DNA from: Betaproteobacteria bacterium UKL13-2
Lineage (GTDB): Bacteria; Pseudomonadota; Gammaproteobacteria; Burkholderiales; Usitatibacteraceae
Direction: 5' to 3'
DNA length: 64,000 nucleotides
Assembly: GCA_001602455.1 (NCBI GenBank)
Contig: CP012157.1
Location: forward strand, 801,733-865,732
How positions within the stretch are numbered: position 1 is the stretch's first letter; each line of letters starts with the position of its first letter. Positions 2,468 to 20,174 of the stretch are shown here, piece by piece. Both the position numbers and the translations under genes were made by a program. A model generated the notes under the pieces. The model had not been told where the DNA came from. It saw nothing but the letters and a program-made list of their open reading frames with translations, and searched no databases.

Positions 2468-2512
2468 ATAAAATCAACGGCTTACGTGAGTAAGCCGTTT
2501 TGTTTTTGGGCT
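2421..2512 (+). repeat. att-like repeat, left copy (tRNA anticodon arm + terminator)
   Basis: Two blocks, 2421-2436 (16 nt, tRNA anticodon arm) and 2476-2512 (37 nt, terminator), recur exactly and in the same order at 18880-18895 and 18896-18932. The 39 nt between them (2437-2475) are missing from the right copy. This is what a tRNA 3'-half att site with a later deletion would look like. Confidence 0.7.
2476..2507 (+). terminator. Rho-independent terminator of tRNA-Thr
   Basis: A perfect 10-bp stem (AACGGCTTAC / GTAAGCCGTT, loop GTGA) followed by a T-rich tail. The same hairpin with its tail occurs at 18896-18927. Confidence 0.92.
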
Positions 2513-4427: not shown

Positions 4428-4901
4428 TTATTTTTTTCTTACCAAATCAAGAAAGACATTCACTGCAACAATGGCGTCGATCACTTCCTGCTTGGGAATG
4501 TTGGGAGCACTCGGATGGGAATAAGGATTCATCACAACGTCCTTCAGCATTTCAAGTCGCTTGATAGCTGCGTCCCAGTCGGCTTGCTTTACGCTTCCCG
4601 TAGCTGTCCATCCTTTCAGCTTGCTTAGGAGAACTTGCGTTTTGTACGTTTTTTGATCTACCAGATAGGGGATTTCAGTTTTCTTGAGTTCGCAGGCCCC
4701 GCGGACAACATACTCGAATGCCTGACGGGCATAGTTGGCGGCGGCCTCGACGTAGCCAAGCTTAAGAAGGTCATCCGCCTTCTGCAAAAGTGCCGACGCC
4801 GGCCGGTTCTGCGTAGTACGGACAATTGGAATCGGCATGGGCGCGGTGGCTGCGTTGTCACCCTCGTAAATCTCAATGGGTAAATTGGGGTCAGACACCA
4901 T
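4428..4901 (-). pseudogene. HEPN-like C-terminal fragment, 5' end replaced by a repeat
   Basis: A 157-codon frame. Its first seven codons (MVSDPNL) are encoded entirely by the repeat motif at 4881-4903, so the apparent start is not the gene's own. The body is helical: an ARQAFEYVVRGACE segment (about residues 58-71) and, near the end, MNPYSHPSAPN followed by helices. This resembles the HEPN-like tail found at the C-terminus of SMC/RecF-like or DUF4145-type proteins. I read it as the last ~150 residues of a larger protein whose front was lost at the repeat junction. Expression from the repeat-supplied ATG is possible but unproven. Confidence 0.5.
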
Positions 4902-4985
4902 TTATGAAATCCTAGTTGGTTTGTCTCCCAAGGGTAAATTGGGGTCAGACACCATTTATGAAATCCTAGTTGGTTTGTCTCCCAA
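4878..4985 (+). repeat. Two perfect tandem 54-bp repeats carrying the breakpoint motif
   Basis: Copies 4878-4931 and 4932-4985 are identical. Each holds TAAATTGGGGTCAGACACC and then a 31-bp tail ending GTTTGTCTCCCAA. The block separates the HEPN-like fragment from a 5'-truncated Rhs gene. Other copies of the core motif, all in this orientation, lie at 7026, 61786 and 62434. Confidence 0.9.
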
Positions 4986-6639: not shown

Positions 6640-7028
6640 CCGCTGACGCGGCTAACGCGTTGCAGCCTGCGTCCGCCGCTTGGTGCTCGCACTCGCCTTA
6701 GTTGCTGCGGCAGTGACAGGCACCGCCCCCGCCCAGCGTCGCGCCTGATACTTCAGGATCATCCCATCGATCAATTCCCCGTTGGCCGGTCAAATTCCCC
6801 CACCCTTGGCCACTTCAAATTCCCCCACCTCGCTGAGCGATTAGCGGCGTAATTCTGCGCCGGTTCTTAGCTCATCGGGAGCCGCACTGGCAGGACGTAT
6901 CTTCCCCCTTCGAACCAACGAAGGGGTATGGAGTGAACGTCTTGAAGCCACATCTGCAAACAACCGTATTTACGCTTCTAGCTGCTGGCGAGAGCCAACG
7001 TGAGATCGCGCGCATCACTAGTGAGTAA
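6640..7028 (+). mobile_element. IS21-family remnant (one end plus start of istA)
   Basis: Repeated TCAAATTCCCCCACC blocks at about 6789-6830 are the multiple terminal repeats typical of an IS21-like end. A GTG at 6933, preceded by GGAG, then opens VNVLKPHLQTTVFTLLAAG and ESQREIARIT, the N-terminal helix-turn-helix of an IstA transposase. The frame stops at 7028, where the breakpoint motif (7026-7050) cuts it. The DNA at 6640-6780 resembles the end of a second IS21-type gene, but no frame is intact. The element is dead. Confidence 0.7.
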
Positions 7029-7050
7029 ATTGGGGTCAGACACCATTTAT
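7026..7050 (+). repeat. Breakpoint motif, single copy
   Basis: TAAATTGGGGTCAGACACC followed by ATTTAT, identical over the core to the two copies at 4881 and 4935. It lies exactly where istA is truncated and the IS1380-like end remnant begins. Confidence 0.85.
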
Positions 7051-7438: not shown

Positions 7439-7978
7439 CTAAAACAAGTCACCTGTTGTTGGCGTAGGCGCCCAATCTTTCTTGGGCTGCGGCTTTTCTC
7501 GTTTGGGACGCGGTGGCATGGGCTCAGGCCGCGAGGTCATGAGCTCTGGCGGGAATGGCTTCAATAGCTTCACTGCATCCATCGGTGTGGCGTTAAGCCA
7601 GGCGAGATAGTTTTCTGGTTCAAGTATGACAGGCATGCGCTTTTCATCACCTGGGCGATGGAACTGATTCATTACCGGATGCGTGTGAGCATTAATAGTC
7701 AACATCGTGAATGACTCGAAGTACGCGTCGCCCTTACTGTGGCTTTCCCACAAACCACCAATAGCAAATGGTTCACGACTGGCCATCTCGATTCGCCAGC
7801 GGACCGCCTGACCTGTTTGCCAATTCGGTTCATAGAATAGTTCGGATGGCACCAAACAAAACTGTGCGCGGCTCCATGCCTGACGAAACATCGGCTTCTC
7901 CGCAACCGTCTCCGTTCTAGCGTTGTAAGCCATGCGCCCAAGTTTGGTGACTTGATCATCTTTTGCCCAAAACGGCAC
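7439..7978 (-). pseudogene. SRAP (YedK/HMCES-like) protein lacking its N-terminus
   Basis: The frame shows NARTETVAEKPMFRQAWSRA, FYEPNWQTGQAVRWR, GLWES and TMLTINAHTHPVMNQFH, diagnostic of SOS-response-associated peptidases, which crosslink to abasic sites in ssDNA. The N-terminal MCxR segment with catalytic Cys2 is absent. Just upstream the homology (VWNGRPRGLGL) continues in another frame, so there is a frameshift near 7980, and it then runs out by about 8060. Without Cys2 it should be inactive. Confidence 0.7.
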
Positions 7979-9705: not shown

Positions 9706-9738
9706 TTGACAATCGAACGCACGTAAATACAATGTATT
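9706..9738 (+). promoter_or_regulatory. brnTA promoter with palindromic operator
   Basis: -35 TTGACA (9706-9711), a 16-bp spacer and -10 TACAAT (9728-9733). A perfect inverted repeat, AATACA-A-TGTATT (9726-9738), overlaps the -10 box and ends one base before the brnT ATG. In BrnT–BrnA systems BrnA represses its own promoter, so this is the likely BrnA site. Confidence 0.65.
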
Positions 9739-9739
9739 G

Positions 9740-10027
9740 ATGATCACGTTCGAGTGGGACCCGCCGAAAGCGGCAACTAACCTCAAGAAGCATCAAATAT
9801 CGTTCGAAGAAGCGAGATCCGTCTTTTTTGATGAGTTCGCGGTACAGTTCTTCGACGAAGCGCACTCATTAGACGAAGAGCGGTTCCTGCTGTTGGGAAT
9901 GAGTTCCGGTGCGAAATTGCTTATCGTTTGTCACTGCGAGAGAAATGAAGGCGAAGTTATTCGGATCATCTCTGCCCGTAAAGCGACGAAACGAGAAAGC
10001 GAGTTTTATCAAGGTGGCCATATATGA
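9740..10027 (+). CDS. brnT: BrnT-type toxin
   Basis: A 95-aa protein beginning MITFEWDPPKAATNLKKHQI, followed by FEEARSVFFDE and ending in RIISARKATKRESEFYQ: the full BrnT signature. BrnT is a RelE-fold ribonuclease that arrests growth by cutting mRNA. The conserved Arg/Lys in the ISARKATKRE tail are present, so it should be active. It overlaps brnA by ATGA and has its own promoter. Confidence 0.9.
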   Translation: MITFEWDPPKAATNLKKHQISFEEARSVFFDEFAVQFFDEAHSLDEERFLLLGMSSGAKLLIVCHCERNEGEVIRIISARKATKRESEFYQGGHI

Positions 10028-10248
10028 AAACTGAATACGATCTTTCCAAAATGAAGTCTCGCAAAAATCCCTACGCCTCAAAACTGAAGCGGCCCGTGAC
10101 GATGCGACTGTCGGAAGACGTTGTCGCTTATTTCAAAGGGATGGCCGATGAAGCGGGCGTGCCTTACCAGAGCCTAATAAACCTTTATTTGCGCGACTGT
10201 CTTGCGCAAAATCGGAAGGTGCAAATCAAGTGGCCGCAGGGCGCTTAG
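10024..10248 (+). CDS. brnA: BrnA-type antitoxin
   Basis: A 74-aa protein with the ribbon-helix-helix segment RPVTMRLSEDVVAYFKGMAD followed by VPYQSLINLYLRDCL, as in BrnA. It neutralises BrnT and binds the promoter. The start is fixed by the ATGA overlap with brnT. Confidence 0.88.
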   Translation: MKTEYDLSKMKSRKNPYASKLKRPVTMRLSEDVVAYFKGMADEAGVPYQSLINLYLRDCLAQNRKVQIKWPQGA

Positions 10249-10314
10249 CGCTGTTTGATTTGTCAATTTCGGCCAGAAGCGGTCCTACAATTTTGCATCC
10301 CACGCTTGTCAAAA

Positions 10315-10332
10315 GTTCGCATATTTGCTAAC
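10315..10332 (+). promoter_or_regulatory. Imperfect palindrome at the higBA promoter
   Basis: GTTCGCATATTTGCTAAC has 7-bp arms with one mismatch and lies 8 bp before the ATG at 10341. Its position suggests an operator for the HigA-like antitoxin encoded downstream. Confidence 0.45.
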
Positions 10333-10340
10333 ATTGGCGC

Positions 10341-10667
10341 ATGGCGTTTGAAATTGAGTATTTCCACGAGCGTGTGCGTGCAGAGATTGAATCGTGGCCG
10401 GTCGATGTCCTTGCAGACTACGCTCGGCTGATCGAATTGTTGATTGAACACGGTCCTAGCCTCCGCCTTCCGCACTCGCGGGCTCTCGGTGAAGGGCTTT
10501 TCGAATTGCGGCCACACGGGCGCTCCGGCATCGGACGAACGTTCTACTGCTTTTTAGTAGGCAAGCGAGTTGTCGTGCTTCATGCATTCATCAAAAAGAC
10601 TCAACAAACGCCCGATCGCGAATTGAAGTTGGCGCGCAAGCGCCTAAAGGAGATACCAAATGGCTGA
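10341..10667 (+). CDS. higB: HigB/RelE-like toxin (phage Gp49-like)
   Basis: A 108-aa protein with HSRALGEGLFELRPHGRSGI, TFYCFLVGKRVVVLHAFIKK and QQTPDRELKLARKRLKE, the standard Gp49/HigB layout. These toxins are ribosome-dependent mRNA endonucleases. The toxin gene comes first and overlaps higA by 8 nt, the usual HigBA order. Confidence 0.9.
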   Translation: MAFEIEYFHERVRAEIESWPVDVLADYARLIELLIEHGPSLRLPHSRALGEGLFELRPHGRSGIGRTFYCFLVGKRVVVLHAFIKKTQQTPDRELKLARKRLKEIPNG

Positions 10668-10977
10668 GTTGAAATTCAAACCTGTCGTTCATAATCACAA
10701 AGAATTTCTTGCGAAAGCTAGTGCTCGCAAAGGGTTCACTGAAGCGTATGAAGCGCTTGAGCTTGAATATCAGGTCGCCGGGCAAATGCTTAAGGCGCGT
10801 TCTCGCGCCGGTCTTACGCAAGACGCCGTCGCTGAGCGCATGGGCACTACCAAGAGCGCGATCTCTCGGCTTGAGTCTGCTGGCAAACACGCTCCTTCGC
10901 TCGCAACATTAAAGCGTTATGCGCTTGCCGTCGGCTGCGAATTGCAAGTAAAACTTGTTCCGCAGAAAACTGCCTGA
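10660..10977 (+). CDS. higA: HigA-like XRE-family antitoxin
   Basis: A 105-aa protein. Residues ~47-75 (RAGLTQDAVAERMGTTKSAI and SRLESAGKH) are a Cro/C1 helix-turn-helix, followed by SLATLKRYALAVGCEL. It neutralises HigB and represses the operon. Translational coupling with higB fixes the start. Confidence 0.9.
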   Translation: MAELKFKPVVHNHKEFLAKASARKGFTEAYEALELEYQVAGQMLKARSRAGLTQDAVAERMGTTKSAISRLESAGKHAPSLATLKRYALAVGCELQVKLVPQKTA

Positions 10978-11404
10978 AGCCACGCAACGCCGCCAATCTC
11001 CTGCGCTGGGACCCACGCTAATTTCCCGAATTAGATGACCGCTTTCGGGAAATCTGAATGACCGCTATGGGTCAGACTCGGCGGTTCCCGATGAAAAAAA
11101 GCGGACATTACAGCCGGGCAATTCCGCACTTGGTCCGAAAGTTGACCAACGGTCGATCAGTCAGAAAACAACTCGGCAGTGAAAATTGTATGTTTGTACG
11201 ATTGCGGGAATTCCACGCAATGTTCCAGTTACCCATCTTTAATTGCGGCCACAAGAAAAATCCAAAATGCCGCAAAAAAGAGGTCAATTTCAGGAAATTG
11301 CGCATTTTCCGCCGGTAAGCTCCTCTTTATGGGCACCTTACCGATGATACGAGTAAGCAAAACTAATAAAAAATACATGTCATTTACCTCCATTGGATGA
11401 CGAC
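10978..11404 (+). other. Gene-free stretch before the recombinase operon
   Basis: No convincing gene on either strand. It holds one copy of the cassette-boundary motif (about 11069-11090), preceded by two GACCGCT blocks (11038 and 11059), then AT-rich DNA that should carry the promoter of the recombinase operon. Confidence 0.5.
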
Positions 11405-13387
11405 ATGAGCCCAGATTCTCCCAATTCATTAGCCTTCGACTTAGTAAGTCCGCGCAAGCGTCAAGCAAGCCTCAATAGCTTGCTCCTGCGCAAGCGTATA
11501 CAGACTATTTTTCGCTTGCCGAGCCTAGTCGGTGTCTCTGCGATTGCACTTGCTCTGTTGGAGGACTGCGAAAAGTGCGGCACCACAATATTGATCGCGC
11601 CCGAGTGGGTTTCAGCTTTACGGCAAGTTGCGACCGAGACCACTCAGGAAATTGCGTCAACGTTTAGCCTCGATGCCGCGAAACTCGGTGCTCTAAATTC
11701 CCGCGTTGTAAACGCGGGTGTAGGTAAACCCACGCCGAAGTTGAACGAAAGTGAGCAGCTTCAAATTGTTTCATGTCGATTGCAGCTTATGCTTTTTGCA
11801 CTTGCGACTGGAAAAACTTTCTCCCTCGAGTCGTTTGCTGCTATTCAAAGTATGTTGCAAGCGCGCTATCCAGATCAACAAGCCATATTCACTGCATTTT
11901 TTTCTGGCGATTCTGAATTCAGTCCCGCAGTAGAAGCATCTGGGCGGACAAGAAAGTTGATGGCTTTGTTGGAGACTGCGCGCAAGCAACGGGCTCACAC
12001 AGAGGTATTTCCGGCGCGGCTACTGATCAAAACTGTGGATCGAAATGCAGGTACTACAGTACCGACTTCAGGTGCGGCAGTGAGGTTGCGAGCCAGCCCG
12101 ATGACTACGCCTTCCTCGCCTCGCGTAGATCTGGAAGCGGAAACACCGAAGGAAAACCTCGTTGGACACAAGCGCCAGCGCCTAAATTTCGCAACCCCGA
12201 GGGAATTTTCCGGGGTCGGAAATCTCTGGAAAGTGCACGATGAATTGGAGTTGTGCAAGCTTTTTCGGTTGCTTCTGCCAAAGCTCCGTGCAGGCAATGA
12301 AGATGCGCTGGCGGTGTTTTTAGTTTTCTTTCTCAGCGTCCGCGTGGATGACTTTGCGAACATTGCTTTGCAACCTACCGTTCCCTCGTCGATTTGGGTT
12401 GACTTGGAAGTTGGCGGATTCTTCTGGGATCTACGCGCAATCAAAGATCGCGATTACGTTCAACTCCCTCTTGCAAGTACTGATGTACCAACATCGGTGT
12501 TTGTGCCGCTGCCAAACGAAGTTGTCGACGCAATGCGGGAAAAATCAAAAGCGGCGAGTACAAATGCGTCACTGCTGTCCTTTTTTGGAGTGAGCGCGGA
12601 TGAGTTGCAAGCGCGGACTCGTCGCCTTCTCTGGGAATCTAACGTCTGGAGCCACGGATTCACTAAATCCAGACTTGCGTTCAGCTGGGGCCGTGTACTT
12701 CTCGGTGGGTGTCGCGACGAGGCCATCGCGTCGGCAATTAGTACGGACTTCACAATCGGAACGCCGTCGCAGTTTCATTACGTTCGAATCGGGGCGAAGC
12801 AAATCAATCAAACATTAAAGGCCGCCTTCATCCGGCTGGGCCTTTCGGGAAAATTCACGGAGGCAACAAGAGATGCCCATTTGTTTTCTAATCCGTCCGA
12901 CCTTGCGACGCTTTGGCCTGGAGTCAAAGATATTCTTGCCAAGATTAAGTCTCGATTTGAACCCTTCCCAAAAAAGATTAGCTTGGGAACAGTCATAGAA
13001 CTTCACAATCAAATTGCGCTTGCCATTTCGGCACTGCTGTGGACTACGACAGGAAGTCGCGGTGCGAAAGAGTGGAGTTTTCAGCGGCATTCAATTTGTT
13101 TGAAAAGTGGGGCAATTCTTGTTACGGATAAGGCAACTACTGCCTACCACCGGATACGGGTGGTGCCGCTCACACCAATTGCCATTGACTGGATTAGTTT
13201 TTATATACGGTGGCTTGGCTTCGCTTCTTCACGCCTGATCGAGTCGAACCCTCGGCTTGCGGGCCAGATTGCGTCAGTGGTGTCGGATAGCGGAGCGCCT
13301 GCAGCGATTCCGTTTTTCTTTTTCGTGAAAAGTGGGAAAGCGCGTGCCTTTGGCGCGCGCCACGTGTTGCGGCAGGTGATGAAATGA
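11405..13387 (+). CDS. Tyrosine-recombinase-like protein, first gene of a trio (catalytic domain incomplete)
   Basis: About 660 residues. The last ~110 look like a tyrosine recombinase catalytic domain: ALLWTTTGSRGAKEWSF with a Box I Arg (codon 13058-13060), then a beta-hairpin with ILVTDKATTAYHRIRVVPL (candidate catalytic Lys), and finally ARHVLRQ at the extreme C-terminus, which supplies HxxR. No Box III or Tyr follows because the frame stops three residues later. The matching GRG...Y segment opens the next gene. The N-terminal ~500 residues have no recognised domain. A TTG at 11393 is an alternative start. The stop overlaps the next ATG by ATGA. Confidence 0.6.
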   Translation: MSPDSPNSLAFDLVSPRKRQASLNSLLLRKRIQTIFRLPSLVGVSAIALALLEDCEKCGTTILIAPEWVSALRQVATETTQEIASTFSLDAAKLGALNSRVVNAGVGKPTPKLNESEQLQIVSCRLQLMLFALATGKTFSLESFAAIQSMLQARYPDQQAIFTAFFSGDSEFSPAVEASGRTRKLMALLETARKQRAHTEVFPARLLIKTVDRNAGTTVPTSGAAVRLRASPMTTPSSPRVDLEAETPKENLVGHKRQRLNFATPREFSGVGNLWKVHDELELCKLFRLLLPKLRAGNEDALAVFLVFFLSVRVDDFANIALQPTVPSSIWVDLEVGGFFWDLRAIKDRDYVQLPLASTDVPTSVFVPLPNEVVDAMREKSKAASTNASLLSFFGVSADELQARTRRLLWESNVWSHGFTKSRLAFSWGRVLLGGCRDEAIASAISTDFTIGTPSQFHYVRIGAKQINQTLKAAFIRLGLSGKFTEATRDAHLFSNPSDLATLWPGVKDILAKIKSRFEPFPKKISLGTVIELHNQIALAISALLWTTTGSRGAKEWSFQRHSICLKSGAILVTDKATTAYHRIRVVPLTPIAIDWISFYIRWLGFASSRLIESNPRLAGQIASVVSDSGAPAAIPFFFFVKSGKARAFGARHVLRQVMK

Positions 13388-16191
13388 GCGGAAATTCTGA
13401 GGCACGTCGTGCTGTGGACGAGCTTTTGCGCGCACCTTCGAAGGATGAATCGTCGGGTGCGAGGAACATAACGTCGGCAGACGTAATGGCAGTAGCCGGC
13501 CGAGGCGCTGCCGGCGGGGAAACGTTTGCTTCCTACAGCGCAGCCTCTCCCCAGCTTTTGATGATTACCGTTGCAGAGACGCTCCACAAGTCGCAGGTGG
13601 CCTTTAAGTTTCCGAGCGCGCCGTCGTTTGCGCCCCGTGCAATCGCGGACATCGCGCCTGCACGTGGCTACTATCAACCGCAAATTCTTCGAAAAAACAA
13701 AGACAGCGAAGTGAAATTCTGCGCGGGCATCGACGAGGAACCGTATTTGCAGGAGGACACTCTGTTCAGATCGCGCCGCTACGTGAGTCTTGCAGGTCAA
13801 TGGTTTTCTGTTCCGGCAAATAAAGGCTACTCGGATGTGGCAATAAGTCTGGTGGTGGTGGACGGAGTTTGCCTTGAAGAGGAGCTACGTTTTTTCCTGA
13901 GAGAATTGTTTTGCGGAAAAATCTACTATCACCGAGATTTATTTTTCAGCGATGTGTTGTGTCCAACCCTTGGGTTGCGTCGAGTTCGACTTTCCCCAAC
14001 CACGATGAAGCTGCTCGATCAATGCTCGAAAAGTGATGTGCATGACGTGGACCAAATTCTAAAGGAGGCAGTTAACACGCTAGCCGGCTTTGCCGCGTTA
14101 AAGAGCTACGACTTCGGTGCCTTTATGTACGACGCGCAAGCTTTTCTCGCGCTGCGAGTGCCGGGATTTGAACGCAGCTGGTACTTGGGCAAGCAATTTT
14201 CTCGTGTGAGCCGACCCGAAACGGTAGCCCGGCACGTCACTGGACTCGCGGAAGACTTGCAAGTTGCTACGCATGTAGCCCACGCAACTCAGGTTGATCG
14301 TCTTCGAGAAAGTGAACTGGACCCATTAGTTTCTAAAGCGGTGCAGGGCCGGCGGGATAAGAGCACTTCTCATGAGATTCTCCGCAAAACGCTCGTCGCC
14401 GAGCTTGCAAAATTATCGGGTACCTTTGCTTCGCCCTTTGAGGAAATGCTCGCAAATTTTCTTCGGTATCTTTGTGATCAGCGACTGGCTGTCACCACGA
14501 TTCGTGGCTATTGGCCGATTGCCCGGGCACTTGCTGACGTTCTTGAGAATGCTGGCGCGCTGCGCAGCGGCGCAAAGAATTCTGATACTTACGAGGTGGT
14601 GCGGGACTTTCTTGTGGGCTGCGTTTCTGAAGAAGCGCCCGACCCCGGAAGCACTGTTGTCGCGGCAAGTAACCACCTGCTCAAGTTCCTAAAAATTGCG
14701 TTGCGGGCGGAGACTGTTTTCGATCCCGCGCAGGTCGCAAGGGCGTATGCAGATTTTCCGTCTTACGCTGAAATTTCCATTGCTGCGCAGCTAGCGCAAT
14801 CAGAGCCAAACGCAACAATTCGGGAAAAAGAAGACGCAGCGCTCGCGCTTCTTTTAATCATAGAGTTTTCGCTCCGCCGCAACGAACTAATTCACCTCAG
14901 GATGTGCGATTTTCGACTTGAAGATGGCGTTTGGCTGTCGATTTGTCGGGCGGCCTCGGGTGGAGTGAAGACGGCAAATGCCGAGAGAGTTCAGCACTCA
15001 CGTTCGGTCGAATTGGCAGAGGCGCTCAAAACGCGCCTTGATTTGATGCGCTCGTTAAAACTCAATAAGCGTAGCTATTTATTTTCCTTTGAAGTCGATC
15101 CGCTAACAAATAAAGAGGAGCGGCGACTATTCAAGCAAATAACAACCTACCTCCAGACCGCGACAGGATCGATTGGAATTGGCATTCACAGGGCGCGCGC
15201 GAGAATTGTGACGACAGAAATATTGTCATGGATGGACTCCAAGATGGACACGTTGTCGATGCGGCAGGCGCCAACCGTACTTGCGATAAAAAGCGGACAC
15301 GCCCACTTTCGGACAACGATGCTGAACTACGCGCATGACTTTGACCAAATCCGTCGAGCGCGATGGGGCCGGCTGAATGCGGAAGCGGGCCTTCTGCCGT
15401 CGAAAGTCTTTAGAGCATCTCTGGGAGCTGGCGGCGCGAAACGCAATCATCACGTAGGCGCGGAAGTGATGTACCCCAATTTGGCGGCCGAACTTGTTCC
15501 ACTATCTTCACTCGTTCGCACCCAGTTGCGAGCAGGGCTGAGTCCTCAGCTTGGTGGCGTGCGCATGCTTCCCGCCGAGCGAATTGTTAAGTGTGCATTC
15601 CATTTGATGGTTGGCCACTCTTCTGCAGCAGCCTCGCACAAAGCCAATACGAGCGCCCAAGAATCCAAACGAATCGAAAAAGGATTTCGATCGAGACCCT
15701 TTCTTCAATGCTCGATACCGCCCATTTCAGAAGGGCGAATCGTATCTGCACTTGAAAGTCCCACCTTTAAGAAGGCCAGCGCAACTCTAGTTGGTGGTGA
15801 GCAACTGGAAGTGCTGAAGTTGCGAGGCTATCTAACCATTAAGAGCCCTGATCAACCTTGGCAGTTGCGATGTTGTGATGATGTCGGTGGGCTAGCGGAA
15901 CTAGTTCAGCTTCTAGCTCACGCGGGCATCTCGACACTTGTTTCGCTTCGGAAAGGATGTTCAAAAAACGTCATCGAAGACATGAAATTTTTGAAGTCAC
16001 TGGGGGTGGCTGAGGTCGAAACTTCCGACGCCCGATATTTCCGCCGGAACAAAGATGCAACGGTCGAATTTTTTGAGGCTGGCACACAGGACATGTCGCG
16101 CGAGAAATCTCGTCGGATTTCGATGTTCATCGCGTCCGCGTGCCTTCTAGCCGCCCTAACGCAGTCCCAAGGAGAATCCCGTGCCCGCTAA
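13384..16191 (+). CDS. Large tyrosine recombinase, second gene of a trio
   Basis: A 935-aa protein. A complete catalytic domain occupies about residues 460-670: EFSLRRNELIHLRMCDF (Box I Arg), SGGVKTANAER (Lys), IHRARA (HxxR) and SGHAHFRTTMLNYAHDF (Box III His and probable Tyr nucleophile). Separately, residues ~30-60 contain VMAVAGRGAAGGETFASYSA, which looks like the Box III/Tyr tail of a second recombinase domain, the piece the upstream gene lacks. The C-terminal ~250 residues are unrecognised. Three co-encoded large proteins with recombinase domains recall Tn554-type (TnpA/B/C) and Gamma-Mobile-Trio modules. Which group it belongs to cannot be told without a search. Confidence 0.75.
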   Translation: MSGNSEARRAVDELLRAPSKDESSGARNITSADVMAVAGRGAAGGETFASYSAASPQLLMITVAETLHKSQVAFKFPSAPSFAPRAIADIAPARGYYQPQILRKNKDSEVKFCAGIDEEPYLQEDTLFRSRRYVSLAGQWFSVPANKGYSDVAISLVVVDGVCLEEELRFFLRELFCGKIYYHRDLFFSDVLCPTLGLRRVRLSPTTMKLLDQCSKSDVHDVDQILKEAVNTLAGFAALKSYDFGAFMYDAQAFLALRVPGFERSWYLGKQFSRVSRPETVARHVTGLAEDLQVATHVAHATQVDRLRESELDPLVSKAVQGRRDKSTSHEILRKTLVAELAKLSGTFASPFEEMLANFLRYLCDQRLAVTTIRGYWPIARALADVLENAGALRSGAKNSDTYEVVRDFLVGCVSEEAPDPGSTVVAASNHLLKFLKIALRAETVFDPAQVARAYADFPSYAEISIAAQLAQSEPNATIREKEDAALALLLIIEFSLRRNELIHLRMCDFRLEDGVWLSICRAASGGVKTANAERVQHSRSVELAEALKTRLDLMRSLKLNKRSYLFSFEVDPLTNKEERRLFKQITTYLQTATGSIGIGIHRARARIVTTEILSWMDSKMDTLSMRQAPTVLAIKSGHAHFRTTMLNYAHDFDQIRRARWGRLNAEAGLLPSKVFRASLGAGGAKRNHHVGAEVMYPNLAAELVPLSSLVRTQLRAGLSPQLGGVRMLPAERIVKCAFHLMVGHSSAAASHKANTSAQESKRIEKGFRSRPFLQCSIPPISEGRIVSALESPTFKKASATLVGGEQLEVLKLRGYLTIKSPDQPWQLRCCDDVGGLAELVQLLAHAGISTLVSLRKGCSKNVIEDMKFLKSLGVAEVETSDARYFRRNKDATVEFFEAGTQDMSREKSRRISMFIASACLLAALTQSQGESRAR

Positions 16192-17158
16192 AAGACCACG
16201 GGGACGCGCGCCTCGAGCTGGATCAGCACTACGGTTTACGTCGGCGTTAGTCGAAACGCCGGCCGCAGACAAAAATGGATACCGCGACCTCTCAGGCTTG
16301 ATTGATTTTCTTGATCGCCAAAAGTCAAGGATGAATTCGTTCCAGCTCCACCCACACCTAAAGTCTATTGTGGTTCGGGGATTTCCAGATACATTAGAGC
16401 TCGATGTGGTGTCGGACGTGGAACTGCAAGGCGCGTTAAACCACGAAAATACGGTAGAAGGATCGGCGAAACTAAATCAACAGGAGCAACTCGAGGCGGA
16501 ACAGGAAGTCATCAAGGAAGCAATCAATAACGGGAATGAACTTGCGGCACGGGCTGTTTCTGGCGATGTTACTGCAGACGCGGCCGAAGACTTACTTCAG
16601 CAAGGGCGTCAGGCTGAAGTGACGAAAGCGGTTGTCGAGGCTGCACGCGGACCGGAGCAAGTTCTTGTCGTGGGCGACGAAATTGAACGGCTGGGCGGGA
16701 ATTTGCTGGTGCCAAACGCTATTCAGGACGAATCAATAGTGACCTTCTTCGGCTGCCACGTCATCGGCTTTCGTTTAGATTCTGTCGTGTTGATTCGATT
16801 TTCCGAAGTTTCGAATCGTGCCCACTTGCGCGCTCCACTCATCGACTTCAACACCGTTGAGATACGCCTCAAAAACTCGGGTACCAATGCCGAGTTGTTT
16901 GCACGCGATTTGCACGGCGCAAAATTTTGTTCCGCTACCTTTGATTTCGTCGCCCATGAGCAAATTGCCATTGTCCGTGGATTACGCCCTTGGGATTTTG
17001 TCTTTGATGGGTTTGTAGATCCAAGCCTGATCTACCGACGGCTCGTGCTGACTTCCCAAGGCTTTTTGGACAGCATTGAACAGAATCAAAGAGCCTTTAA
17101 GCCTGAAGCCCAACCGCCTCTAAGCGGTTTGGATGAGCATGAGTTACCTGGCGCGTAG
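16181..17158 (+). CDS. Third protein of the recombinase trio, unknown function
   Basis: 325 aa from GTG at 16181, preceded by AAGGAGA and overlapping the previous gene by 11 nt, so it is translationally coupled. The start is basic (MPAKRPRGRAPRAGS), as in a DNA-binding tail. A Glu/Gln-rich helical region follows (about residues 95-160), then a globular C-terminal half. No family recognised. By position it should be an accessory factor of the recombinases. Confidence 0.6.
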   Translation: MPAKRPRGRAPRAGSALRFTSALVETPAADKNGYRDLSGLIDFLDRQKSRMNSFQLHPHLKSIVVRGFPDTLELDVVSDVELQGALNHENTVEGSAKLNQQEQLEAEQEVIKEAINNGNELAARAVSGDVTADAAEDLLQQGRQAEVTKAVVEAARGPEQVLVVGDEIERLGGNLLVPNAIQDESIVTFFGCHVIGFRLDSVVLIRFSEVSNRAHLRAPLIDFNTVEIRLKNSGTNAELFARDLHGAKFCSATFDFVAHEQIAIVRGLRPWDFVFDGFVDPSLIYRRLVLTSQGFLDSIEQNQRAFKPEAQPPLSGLDEHELPGA

Positions 17159-17354: not shown

Positions 17355-18530
17355 ATGAGTCGAATAATGGCTTCAGAACTGAATCGCTGGATATGGCAGA
17401 CAGCTGAGTGGCCGCCTTTGCGGGTGGATTTGGGAGAGGTCGGCACCGTCCTTGGCAATGCTCGGCATGAGATCGGAAAGCTGATGGGGAAAGCCGAGGC
17501 GGTTGGACGTGGGGATCTGTCATTGACGGAGCGGGACATATGGGCAAAGGACGCACTGGCAACAGCTGCCATTGAAGGCGAGATATTGAATTTCGAGGCA
17601 GTACGTTCTTCTGTGGCAAGACGCCTAGGCATCGCATCAGACTACAAGTCCGCAGTGCCGCGAGATGTTGAAGGTCTCCTCGACGTGATGTCGGATGCAG
17701 CGTCACATTGGGATACCGACCTAACCACTGAGCGCCTCTCAGCGTGGCACTCAGAACTGTTCCCGTCCGCCAAAATTTTGTTGCGCCGAATCACTCCCGG
17801 AGAATATCGAACTCATCAGGAACCGATGCAAATTGTGAGCGGTCCGCAAGGGCGCGAAAAGGTGCATTACGAGGGGCCTCCGTCAGTGCTGGTTTCTGAG
17901 CAAATGCGTGAATTTCTGGAATGGTTTAATCGCACGCGGAACGACCAAAACACTGATGGACTGATACGGGCGGCGCTAGCACACTTGTGGTTTGAATCGA
18001 TACATCCATTTGAGGATGGAAACGGAAGGATTGGACGTGCGATTGTCGACATGGCTCTAGCCCAGGCGGCACGAAGCGCGTTCCGGCTGCATGGCTTGTC
18101 GATTGAATTGAAGCGCCAACAAAAAGAGTATTACGACGCTCTCAACCGGGTGCAGCGAGCAGAGGCCGTACCGACGGATTGGGTTGTGTGGCTACTGGGA
18201 ACGATCTGCCAATCTTGTCAGGCATCTTCGAAGTTTGTTGATGAAGCCATCGATCGCGCACGTTTCTGGTCACAGCACCGAGATGTCGGCCTCAATGAGC
18301 GACAACGTAAGGCGCTGAATAAGATGCTCGAAGCAGGGCCAGGTGGGTTCGTAGGCGGCATGACGCCAAAAAAACTTCAGTCGATTGCGAGCGTTGCCGG
18401 CGCTACCGCAACCCGCGATTTGGTAGAGCTTGTAGAAAAGGGGTTGATGGTCCGTCGCGGTGCCGGACGCTCGACTCGATACGAGCTGGCGATGGAGGGG
18501 TGGCAGTGGCAGCTGGCAAAAAATGATTGA
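17355..18530 (+). CDS. Fic family protein, auto-inhibited (class II), with C-terminal HTH
   Basis: 391 aa. The N-terminus matches DUF4172/Fic_N (WIWQTAEWPPLRVD). TAAIEGE (about residues 73-79) is the inhibitory (S/T)xxxE(G/N) motif placed before the Fic core. The active-site loop HPFEDGNGRIGR (about residues 217-228) is complete with catalytic His. The C-terminal ~70 residues (GMTPKKLQSIASVAGATATR, then GLMVRRGAGRSTRYEL) are a winged-helix DNA-binding fold. It should transfer AMP to a protein hydroxyl once the inhibitory Glu is displaced. It is the last gene before the right att-like repeat. Confidence 0.9.
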   Translation: MSRIMASELNRWIWQTAEWPPLRVDLGEVGTVLGNARHEIGKLMGKAEAVGRGDLSLTERDIWAKDALATAAIEGEILNFEAVRSSVARRLGIASDYKSAVPRDVEGLLDVMSDAASHWDTDLTTERLSAWHSELFPSAKILLRRITPGEYRTHQEPMQIVSGPQGREKVHYEGPPSVLVSEQMREFLEWFNRTRNDQNTDGLIRAALAHLWFESIHPFEDGNGRIGRAIVDMALAQAARSAFRLHGLSIELKRQQKEYYDALNRVQRAEAVPTDWVVWLLGTICQSCQASSKFVDEAIDRARFWSQHRDVGLNERQRKALNKMLEAGPGGFVGGMTPKKLQSIASVAGATATRDLVELVEKGLMVRRGAGRSTRYELAMEGWQWQLAKND

Positions 18531-18879
18531 GCAGGACAGAGCAGAGCGACGGTTGCAAGTCTTGCCGCGCTTTGCTGGTGAAGCCTAGCCAAGTGCGTTG
18601 TGCCAAAGGCCGAGGCTCTGCTGCTAAACTATCGCCATGATGATGAAGGCTTGAGCTGAGCGCCGCCATTACGCTGGTGTAAAAGTCGACTCGCGAAAAT
18701 GCACCATCGCGGCAAGTTGCAAAAATTTTTTGGTAGGTAAAAAGCGGCAAGTATTGAAAGTTCTTGATTTTTTTGACGGGAAAAACAGCGCGCTTCGACT
18801 CCAAATAAAGCTTTAATTATCAGTGAGTTGCAGACGTTTCTGCCCTTTTAAAACCCGTTTAAATCTACAGTCGTAAACA

Positions 18880-18932
18880 CATTCGTAATGCGAAGAACGG
18901 CTTACGTGAGTAAGCCGTTTTGTTTTTGGGCT
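18880..18932 (+). repeat. att-like repeat, right copy (deleted tRNA 3' half + terminator)
   Basis: 16 nt of the tRNA-Thr anticodon arm (18880-18895, including the CGT anticodon) are joined directly to the 37-nt terminator block. Both blocks match 2421-2436 and 2476-2512 exactly. There is no complete tRNA here. It fits a displaced tRNA 3' half left by integration and later shortened by 39 nt. Confidence 0.7.
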
Positions 18933-18976
18933 ATGGCCCACACAGTCTAGTTGAGATTTGTGCAAAACTGACCATA

Positions 18977-19006
18977 TTGACCAAGATAGGTGCCAACGAC
19001 TATAAT
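18977..19006 (+). promoter_or_regulatory. Promoter of the Phd/PIN operon
   Basis: TTGACC (18977-18982), 18-bp spacer, TATAAT (19001-19006), 24 bp before the antitoxin ATG. The start is supported by GGAG at 19021-19024. Confidence 0.6.
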
Positions 19007-19030
19007 GGGCGTTTTAGTGCGGAGTTATAT

Positions 19031-19402
19031 ATGCAGAACCCAGTTAGAACGATCTCGTCGTCAGATGCCAAGGCAACCTTGGGTGATGTGTTGTCGTCGC
19101 TTGATTCGCAAGGACCCGTTGAGATTACGCGGAATGGCAAAACAGTTGGGCTATTGACGCTACCACCTCTGCCGCCGGTGGATGCAAACCGACTAGCTTC
19201 ATTAGCCATCGCGTACTCGAAGGGGCTGATATCTTGGCCACAGATTGCTGAAGAGACTGGGGCCAGCTACGGCGAGTTGTTGATTGCGCTCGGCCTAAAG
19301 AACCTGTCAATCCCAATAATCGCGCCAAAGAAAAGGCCCGAGCAGCTTGCCTTCTTTCACCAGATTCTCGACAAGGCTGCTGCTAGGCAGCAGAAGCAAT
19401 GA
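19031..19402 (+). CDS. Phd/YefM-like antitoxin
   Basis: 123 aa from the ATG at 19031, which has GGAG 6 nt upstream. The N-terminus VRTISSSDAKATLGDVLSSL, then PVEITRNGKTVGLL, is the Phd/YefM DNA-binding domain. The C-terminal half should cap the toxin. It overlaps the PIN gene by ATGA. Confidence 0.8.
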   Translation: MQNPVRTISSSDAKATLGDVLSSLDSQGPVEITRNGKTVGLLTLPPLPPVDANRLASLAIAYSKGLISWPQIAEETGASYGELLIALGLKNLSIPIIAPKKRPEQLAFFHQILDKAAARQQKQ

Positions 19403-19989
19403 CGAATTTCTCTCTTATCGTCACAGATTCTGGGCCTCTGATAACCCTTGCTGTAGCGGACTCGCTCGACTTCCTCTTTCGTGCAGAACTGCCAGTGATT
19501 ATCCCCGACATGGTTAGACATGAGGTGATACAGGATCAATCCAAACCCGGCGCGGCGCTGGTTGCAGAATGGATTCGCCTCAACGACCCCCACCGGCTGA
19601 CGGTCGGCACTACTGAGGTGTTTGAGGAATTCATGTTGCTGAAGTCACTAAACCCTTCGACAAAAACGAAGAACCGTGGTGAACAGGCGGCCTCAGAAAT
19701 TCTGGGAAGAGAGCTGGAAGGTAAAGACTTCGGTGCGGTACTTCTTTTTGAGGACACCGCTGTCAGAAAGGTAAATTTCTTGACGAGGTTGCCTGATTGT
19801 GTGGTCGTGACGTCAACGTCCGAATTTCTTTTTGGCCTCGAAAGTCGCGGTTTGATCCCGGGGGCGCAATCAGTGCTCGACCGCGCCGTCGATGTGAGGG
19901 GTAATGACATATTGGTGAGAAGTCTTGTCGGAACATCCGGTAGTGAACCCATTCAAGAATGGCCGGCACGGATACGACCAAGGATCTAG
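19399..19989 (+). CDS. PIN-like (VapC-type) toxin
   Basis: 196 aa. IVTDSGPLITLAVADSLDFL at the N-terminus carries the first acidic residue of a PIN nuclease in the DSGPLI form. PDMVRHEVI follows, then a middle region with GEQAASEILGRELEGKDFGA and LLFEDTAVRK, giving the further acidic residues. PIN toxins are metal-dependent RNases. It is longer than typical VapC (~130-140 aa), with a C-terminal extension of unknown role. Coupled to the antitoxin. Confidence 0.75.
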   Translation: MTNFSLIVTDSGPLITLAVADSLDFLFRAELPVIIPDMVRHEVIQDQSKPGAALVAEWIRLNDPHRLTVGTTEVFEEFMLLKSLNPSTKTKNRGEQAASEILGRELEGKDFGAVLLFEDTAVRKVNFLTRLPDCVVVTSTSEFLFGLESRGLIPGAQSVLDRAVDVRGNDILVRSLVGTSGSEPIQEWPARIRPRI

Positions 19990-20174
19990 GAAACGCGAGT
20001 TCACATGTATCTTGCGAAATGGCGTTACGACATTTCGGCCAATAGCTGCGGTTCCCAACGACAGTCTGATTGCATATCTTTACTGCATGAATGTAGCTCA
20101 AATCGGGCTGACTCCGGCACTTCGGATCCAATTCTCGCTTCTTTTGGATGCTGCCGCCTAGATGTAGAGACGAA

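What the first reader, a model, noticed from the sequence alone, without database searches (positions are those of the whole stretch)
11405..17158. Recombinase trio with one catalytic domain apparently split across an ATGA overlap
Seen: the first protein ends with Box I Arg, a beta-hairpin Lys and HVLR three residues before its stop. The second protein opens, within 60 residues, with AVAGRGAAGGETFASYS, which looks like the missing Box III and Tyr, and later carries a full second catalytic domain. The third gene overlaps too. Known: Tn554-type and Gamma-Mobile-Trio elements encode three cooperating proteins with tyrosine recombinases. A split active site assembled from two subunits (or joined by -1 frameshifting) would be unusual.
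Basis: partly seen in the sequence, partly recalled or inferred. Interest (0 to 1): 0.75.

Follow-up and report, generated by a model that had tools for sequence, protein, structure and literature searches.

The report
Giant two-headed recombinase, oddly split
Two overlapping genes together encode what many related bacteria make as one very large DNA-cutting-and-joining protein, with the gene break here falling inside the protein's first, probably non-cutting, recombinase domain.

Summary
p1 (660 aa) and p2 (935 aa) overlap by ATGA, p2 carries a complete tyrosine-recombinase (YR) domain, and p2's first ~70 residues continue the YR domain begun in p1: joined to p1 they add 11.5 bits to a profile built without this sequence, reached by 0 of 1000 shuffles. 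In 30 related loci the same ~1,800-aa twin-YR tandem is one ORF (8), two genes split after domain 1 (20), or two genes split before domain 1's catalytic half (2). Only here does the boundary fall inside that domain. Yet domain 1 looks like a pseudo-recombinase: R, K and the Box III H are kept in 30 of 30 relatives, but Box II Arg in 15 and Tyr in 8; domain 2 keeps R, K, R, H, Y wherever sequenced. HVLR may not be Box II (alignments disagree). p3 shows no recombinase signal. The tandem is the only recombinase found in a 16.4-kb stretch between 37-bp direct repeats beside tRNA-Thr. Best reading: p1 and p2 form one complex equal to the giant fused protein; domain 2 cuts DNA, domain 1 binds and organises it. 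Sequencing error or decay at the junction is not excluded.

The parts
11405..13387 (+). p1 (660 aa): long N-terminal region plus the first part of YR domain 1 (R552, K576; ends ARHVLRQVMK)
   Evidence: TTG start at 11393 also possible
13384..16191 (+). p2 (935 aa): end of YR domain 1, long linker, complete YR domain 2, C-terminal region
13363..13387 (+). ATGA stop-start overlap preceded by an AGGTGA Shine-Dalgarno-like sequence
12962..13623 (+). YR domain 1 (degenerate), divided between p1 and p2
   Evidence: limits approximate
14776..15363 (+). YR domain 2 with R498, K529, H602, R605, H639, Y649 (catalytic)
   Evidence: limits approximate
16181..17158 (+). p3 (325 aa), unknown; overlaps p2 by 11 nt; strong SD AAGGAG; no relative found in the other loci examined
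2476..2512 (+). 37-bp direct repeat, left copy: the inverted-repeat/T-run terminator-like sequence just after tRNA-Thr (2392-2467)
18896..18932 (+). 37-bp direct repeat, right copy (100% identical), preceded by 16 bp of the tRNA-Thr anticodon arm

Best explanation
p1 and p2 are the two halves of one giant twin tyrosine recombinase. In relatives it is one ~1,800-aa chain or two chains, mostly divided between the domains. Here a fission has moved the gene boundary into domain 1 and left an ATGA stop-start overlap through which p2 is made by translational coupling. Domain 1 is a pseudo-recombinase: it keeps residues that hold DNA (Box I Arg, hairpin Lys) but in most of the family has lost part of the chemistry (Box II Arg, Tyr). 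Domain 2, wholly in p2, does the cutting with Tyr649. p2's N-terminal ~70 residues are expected to dock onto p1 and complete the domain 1 fold, so that p1-p2 behaves like the fused protein. The substrate is probably the 37-bp tRNA-Thr terminator repeat bounding a 16.4-kb island. Shown: tandem architecture, homology across the junction, fused and split relatives, motif conservation, repeats. Inferred: p1-p2 docking, division of labour, activity, substrate.
For: Collinear alignment of p1+p2 with two-gene and fused relatives. p2's N-terminus completes domain 1, 92.4 vs 80.9 bits, 0 of 1000 shuffles. 8 fused, 20 canonical split, 2 early split among 30 relatives. Domain 1 R-I 30/30, K 30/30, H-III 30/30, R-II 15/30, Y 8/30; domain 2 R-I and K 30/30, R-II, H-III and Y 29/29, the 30th being cut off by its contig end. 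23-locus tree: 14 canonical splits on one side, 7 fused + L058 + this locus on the other, UFBoot 96. 4-nt overlaps at 6 of 15 relative junctions listed. No other recombinase found between the 37-bp repeats.
Against: This boundary is unique (0 of 30 relatives share it); one extra A at the junction would fuse the genes, so sequencing error or a recent inactivating frameshift is possible. No close homologue was found to confirm it. The branch is long and the Box III His is replaced. Seven canonical relatives keep a full set of domain 1 residues, so 'pseudo' does not hold for the whole family. The right repeat is a composite, and the operon is not adjacent to the tRNA. The structure prediction of p2 was useless (pLDDT 37.7).
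Confidence: 0.6

Rival explanations
1. The split is an artefact or recent lesion: the gene is really (or was until recently) one fused ORF, and a one-base deletion in an A-run (sequencing error or mutation) created the stop; p2's ATG is an incidental internal start.
For: One inserted A at ATGAAATGAGC joins the frames. The tree places the locus among fused proteins. No relative shares the boundary. Long branch and loss of the Box III His suggest relaxed constraint.
Against: Single-contig, 100%-complete assembly. The overlap is a canonical ATGA with an SD-like AGGTGA at normal spacing. Domain 2 keeps its catalytic residues. Non-canonical boundaries also occur in L058 and L110.
Confidence: 0.2
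2. A genuinely split active site: p1 supplies R, K and HVLR, p2 supplies Tyr51, and the composite domain 1 cleaves DNA with a nucleophile delivered in trans.
For: Tyr is present at the aligned position; 4 of 6 MAFFT settings align HVLR with Box II; 7 of 20 canonical relatives keep R-I, K, R-II, H-III and Y in domain 1.
Against: R-II and Y are lost in 10 of 10 fused or early-split relatives, the side of the tree on which this locus sits; H-III is Arg here; HMM, L-INS-i and G-INS-i place Box II at ARRAVDELL without its Arg.
Confidence: 0.1
3. p1-p2 joined by programmed -1 frameshifting into a fusion protein.
For: p2 lies in the -1 frame of p1 with an overlap; fused homologues exist.
Against: No classical slippery heptamer at the junction; p2 has its own SD and ATG.
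Confidence: 0.03

Closest known systems
[quoted passage not shown] PMC10214605, PMC9345347)
   Same: Overlapping operon pairing a YR-fold protein that lacks catalytic residues (Tfp) with a large YR with long N-terminus (IntB); translational coupling suggested there too
   Different: No match of the family profiles to Tfp or IntB of two SE cores on pSEA1; no IntA-like gene found here; fusion and a split inside the domain were not mentioned in the passages read
GInts (ginABCD; PMC5385486)
   Same: Several YR genes in one operon, one (GinC) lacking a catalytic Arg; site-specific islands with cargo
   Different: Three integrases and a small GinD at the left end; here two YR genes and a 325-aa unknown; no GInt sequence was compared
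Gamma-Mobile-Trio (GmtXYZ)
   Same: Three-gene module with tyrosine recombinase (recalled, not read)
   Different: The three proteins gave no Gmt model hit in NCBIfam at E<=5; GmtY model NF040693 rings only elsewhere in the genome, below cut-off
Unnamed twin-YR pairs annotated 'hypothetical/integrase' + 'site-specific integrase' on Acinetobacter, Vibrio and Sphingobium plasmids (L021, L023-L025)
   Same: Same family by profile
   Different: Canonical boundary after domain 1; in L023-L025 a 140-197-aa gene upstream; no p3

Membership tests
Tyrosine recombinase (domain 2 of p2) | R...K...HxxR...H...Y | tested here: met
   R498, K529, H602, R605, H639, Y649; columns conserved in relatives; XerD/XerA matches for the p2 profile
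Tyrosine recombinase, catalytic (domain 1) | Box II Arg, Box III His and nucleophilic Tyr kept | tested here: not met
   Box III His is Arg here; Box II ambiguous; Tyr present here but in only 8 of 30 relatives
Twin-YR tandem family (defined here) | Two collinear YR domains, fused or in neighbouring genes | tested here: met
SE | Homologues of Tfp and IntB | tested here: not met
   No Tfp or IntB match to famA/famB; only weak generic YR similarity to IntA; p3 not compared with Srap directly
SE | Strand-biased circle, 6-bp footprint | not testable with these tools
   needs experiment
GInt | ginA-ginB-ginC-ginD homologues | not tested
   no GInt sequence was at hand; gene count differs
GMT | GmtX/GmtY/GmtZ family match | tested here: not met
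   only the GmtY model was confirmed to be in the library
RIT elements | Three tyrosine recombinases in trio | tested here: not met
   p3 has no recombinase match
Tn554 | TnpA/TnpB plus TnpC | tested here: inconclusive
   no NCBIfam/Pfam hit; no direct comparison with TnpA-C

The most novel reading that the evidence does not exclude
A natural tyrosine recombinase whose active site is assembled from two separately translated polypeptides, p1 giving Arg, Lys and HxxR and p2 the nucleophilic Tyr51, coupled by an ATGA overlap, alongside a second intact recombinase on the same chain.
Probability: 0.08. Interest if true: 0.85.

Novelty: new variant of a known kind. Interest (0 to 1): 0.5.

Why it matters
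It brings out a family of very large two-domain tyrosine recombinases in which one domain has kept its DNA-holding residues while often losing its chemistry, and in which gene boundaries wander or vanish. The fused members fix a 1:1 pairing of an inactive and an active recombinase on one chain, which makes it testable why multi-recombinase elements such as SE and GInt carry a catalytically dead partner. The split here is a natural fragment-complementation experiment on a recombinase fold. Five literature searches turned up no description of such fused twin recombinases in their listings; the library is open-access only.

Tried and rejected
Direct tblastn or pattern searches with p1 or p2 in plasmids, phages, IMG/VR and GTDB contigs: nothing (phages and IMG/VR were searched with p2 only); three IMG/VR scans with relatives' proteins also found nothing. 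Single-sequence AlphaFold of p2: pLDDT 37.7, not used; p1 was not folded. PDB search with the p2 profile: polyubiquitin rows at the top are artefacts of summed weak repeats, XerD/XerA rows are meaningful; the p1 profile gives XerD only at E 0.04. The 31-locus tree was spoiled by misalignment of L058 (branch length 10) and is not used; the 31-locus tree carries no support values and serves only as topology (it puts one fused relative, L111, among canonical splits). p3 homologues in the loci: none. tRNA next to relatives: only L066 of 27 loci scanned, so tRNA targeting is not shown as a family trait. Rows dropped before counts: L061 (contig-cut, near-copy of L062) and L067 (second gene matches, first gene has no domain-1 match). 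L024, L025 and L117 are near-identical and not independent; L021, L116 and L117 have short first genes; L117 is cut before the end of domain 2. In one search the 'D2 BoxII H' column was set one residue off; it was corrected.

Full report
Anatomy. Three + strand ORFs overlap: p1 11405-13387 (660 aa; TTG at 11393 possible), p2 13384-16191 (935 aa), p3 16181-17158 (325 aa). p1/p2 share ATGA. p2 is preceded by AGGTGA and p3 by AAGGAG. Pfam and NCBIfam see almost nothing: p2 has a sub-threshold Phage_integrase match at 485-588, p1 none, and p3 only weak matches to unrelated families. PHROGs gives integrase families for p2 only.

Finding relatives. tblastn and pattern searches found nothing in plasmids, phages, IMG/VR or GTDB contigs. 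Phylum-level searches of 398 genomes each led to L017-L019, pairs of overlapping ~800-890 and ~1,030-1,107-aa genes, and L020, one ORF of 1763 aa. Proteins of L017 and L018 hit plasmid records (L021-L025 taken, 5 of several hundred records). Profiles then found 15 strong loci in 12 of 399 genomes of the order (E <= 1.6e-18, own excluded; the weaker rows have ordinary-integrase lengths) and 8 loci in 7 of 340 genomes of the class (own excluded). After dropping L061 and L067, 30 relatives remain.

Architecture. p1+p2 aligns collinearly with the relatives over the whole length. Eight relatives are single ORFs of 1763-1867 aa, 20 are split after domain 1, and 2 (L058, L110) are split before the catalytic half of domain 1. 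None is split where this locus is. Of 15 relative junctions listed, 6 have a 4-nt overlap (L018, L019, L058, L062, L064, L068).

Is domain 1 really divided? A profile of the relatives' domain 1, built without this locus, scores 80.9 bits on the last 260 residues of p1 and 92.4 bits when p2's first 130 residues are added. None of 1000 shuffles and none of 225 other p2 windows reaches 92.4 (best 88.2 and 84.9). The p2 frame upstream of its ATG (31 codons) shows no domain 1 sequence by eye, whereas the p1 frame does. The boundary is therefore inside the domain.

Is HVLR Box II? In the relatives-only profile, L-INS-i and G-INS-i, HVLR falls in the helix before Box II, and Box II is p2's ARRAVDELL without its Arg. 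E-INS-i, FFT-NS-i and the two BLOSUM45 settings align HVLR with Box II, at the cost of a deletion and an insertion of some 20 residues each as seen in the E-INS-i alignment. I favour the former because it needs smaller gaps, but it is not settled. A single-sequence model of p2 was useless.

Is domain 1 catalytic? Among 30 relatives R-I, K and H-III are kept in 30, H-II in 21, R-II in 15 and Tyr in 8. In the 10 fused or early-split relatives R-II and Tyr are kept in none; in the 20 canonical ones R-II in 15 and Tyr in 8. Seven canonical relatives (L023, L057, L062, L068, L070, L113, L115) keep R-I, K, R-II, H-III and Tyr, so some first domains could be active. Here Tyr51 is present, but H-III is Arg40. 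Domain 2 keeps R-I and K in 30 of 30, and R-II, H-III and Tyr in 29 of 29 (L117 is cut off by its contig end). On the 23-locus tree this locus groups with the 7 fused proteins and L058 (UFBoot 96 for the bipartition). Ancestral fusion followed by fission is thus a simple history, but the same facts fit a sequencing slip of one A.

Context. A 37-bp perfect direct repeat occurs at 2476-2512, 8 bp after tRNA-Thr(CGT), and at 18896-18932. It is a terminator-like inverted repeat. In a same-genus genome (L099) tRNA-Thr is followed by 36 of the 37 bp and then by other DNA, so the left copy is native. The right copy is preceded by 16 bp of the tRNA anticodon arm, so it looks like a rearranged tRNA remnant. 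Between the repeats lie DUF5131, RHS, BrnT, Gp49/HTH, SRAP and Fic genes and no other recombinase by Pfam on the ORFs submitted or by the family profiles on all window ORFs of 60 codons or more. This makes the tandem the best candidate for mobilising the 16.4-kb stretch, but no empty site was shown and only 1 of 27 relative loci scanned has a tRNA nearby.

Known systems. SEs pair a catalytically dead YR-fold protein (Tfp) with a large YR (IntB) in an overlapping operon, and translational coupling is suggested there (PMC10214605, PMC9345347; passages read). I fetched two SE core regions from pSEA1: the family profiles give no match to Tfp or IntB. GInts (PMC5385486, passages read) have three integrases and GinD; they were not compared by sequence. 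No GMT model matches. It works like the Tfp/IntB pairing but is not shown to belong to any of these.

Mechanism. Inferred: p1 folds as far as the missing end of domain 1, p2's N-terminus, made next on the same mRNA, docks and completes it, and the p1-p2 pair acts as the fused protein does, domain 1 holding DNA and domain 2 cutting with Tyr649. No step of this has been tested.

Noticed in passing
2476-2512 and 18896-18932: 37-bp perfect direct repeats made of the tRNA-Thr terminator bound a 16.4-kb stretch; the right copy carries 16 bp of the tRNA anticodon arm in front.
   Followed up: partly
9737-10977 and 17355-20000: Toxin-antitoxin-like and Fic genes (BrnT, Gp49/HTH pair, Fic with DUF4172, Phd/YefM-like) crowd around the recombinase genes.
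   Followed up: no
7442-7978 (-): SRAP-domain (SOS response-associated peptidase) gene lacking the first ~60 model positions.
   Followed up: no
L018, L020, L022, L060, L064: A separate ordinary integrase of ~390-440 aa lies within a few kb of the twin-recombinase genes in these loci, recalling the ordinary-plus-large pairing of SEs.
   Followed up: partly
L022, L023, L024, L025: A 140-209-aa ORF directly upstream of the pair; L022 and L023 copies are similar to each other.
   Followed up: no
4877-4985 and 7022-7050: Repeats of TGGGGTCAGACACC type: a 54-bp tandem and a distant copy.
   Followed up: no
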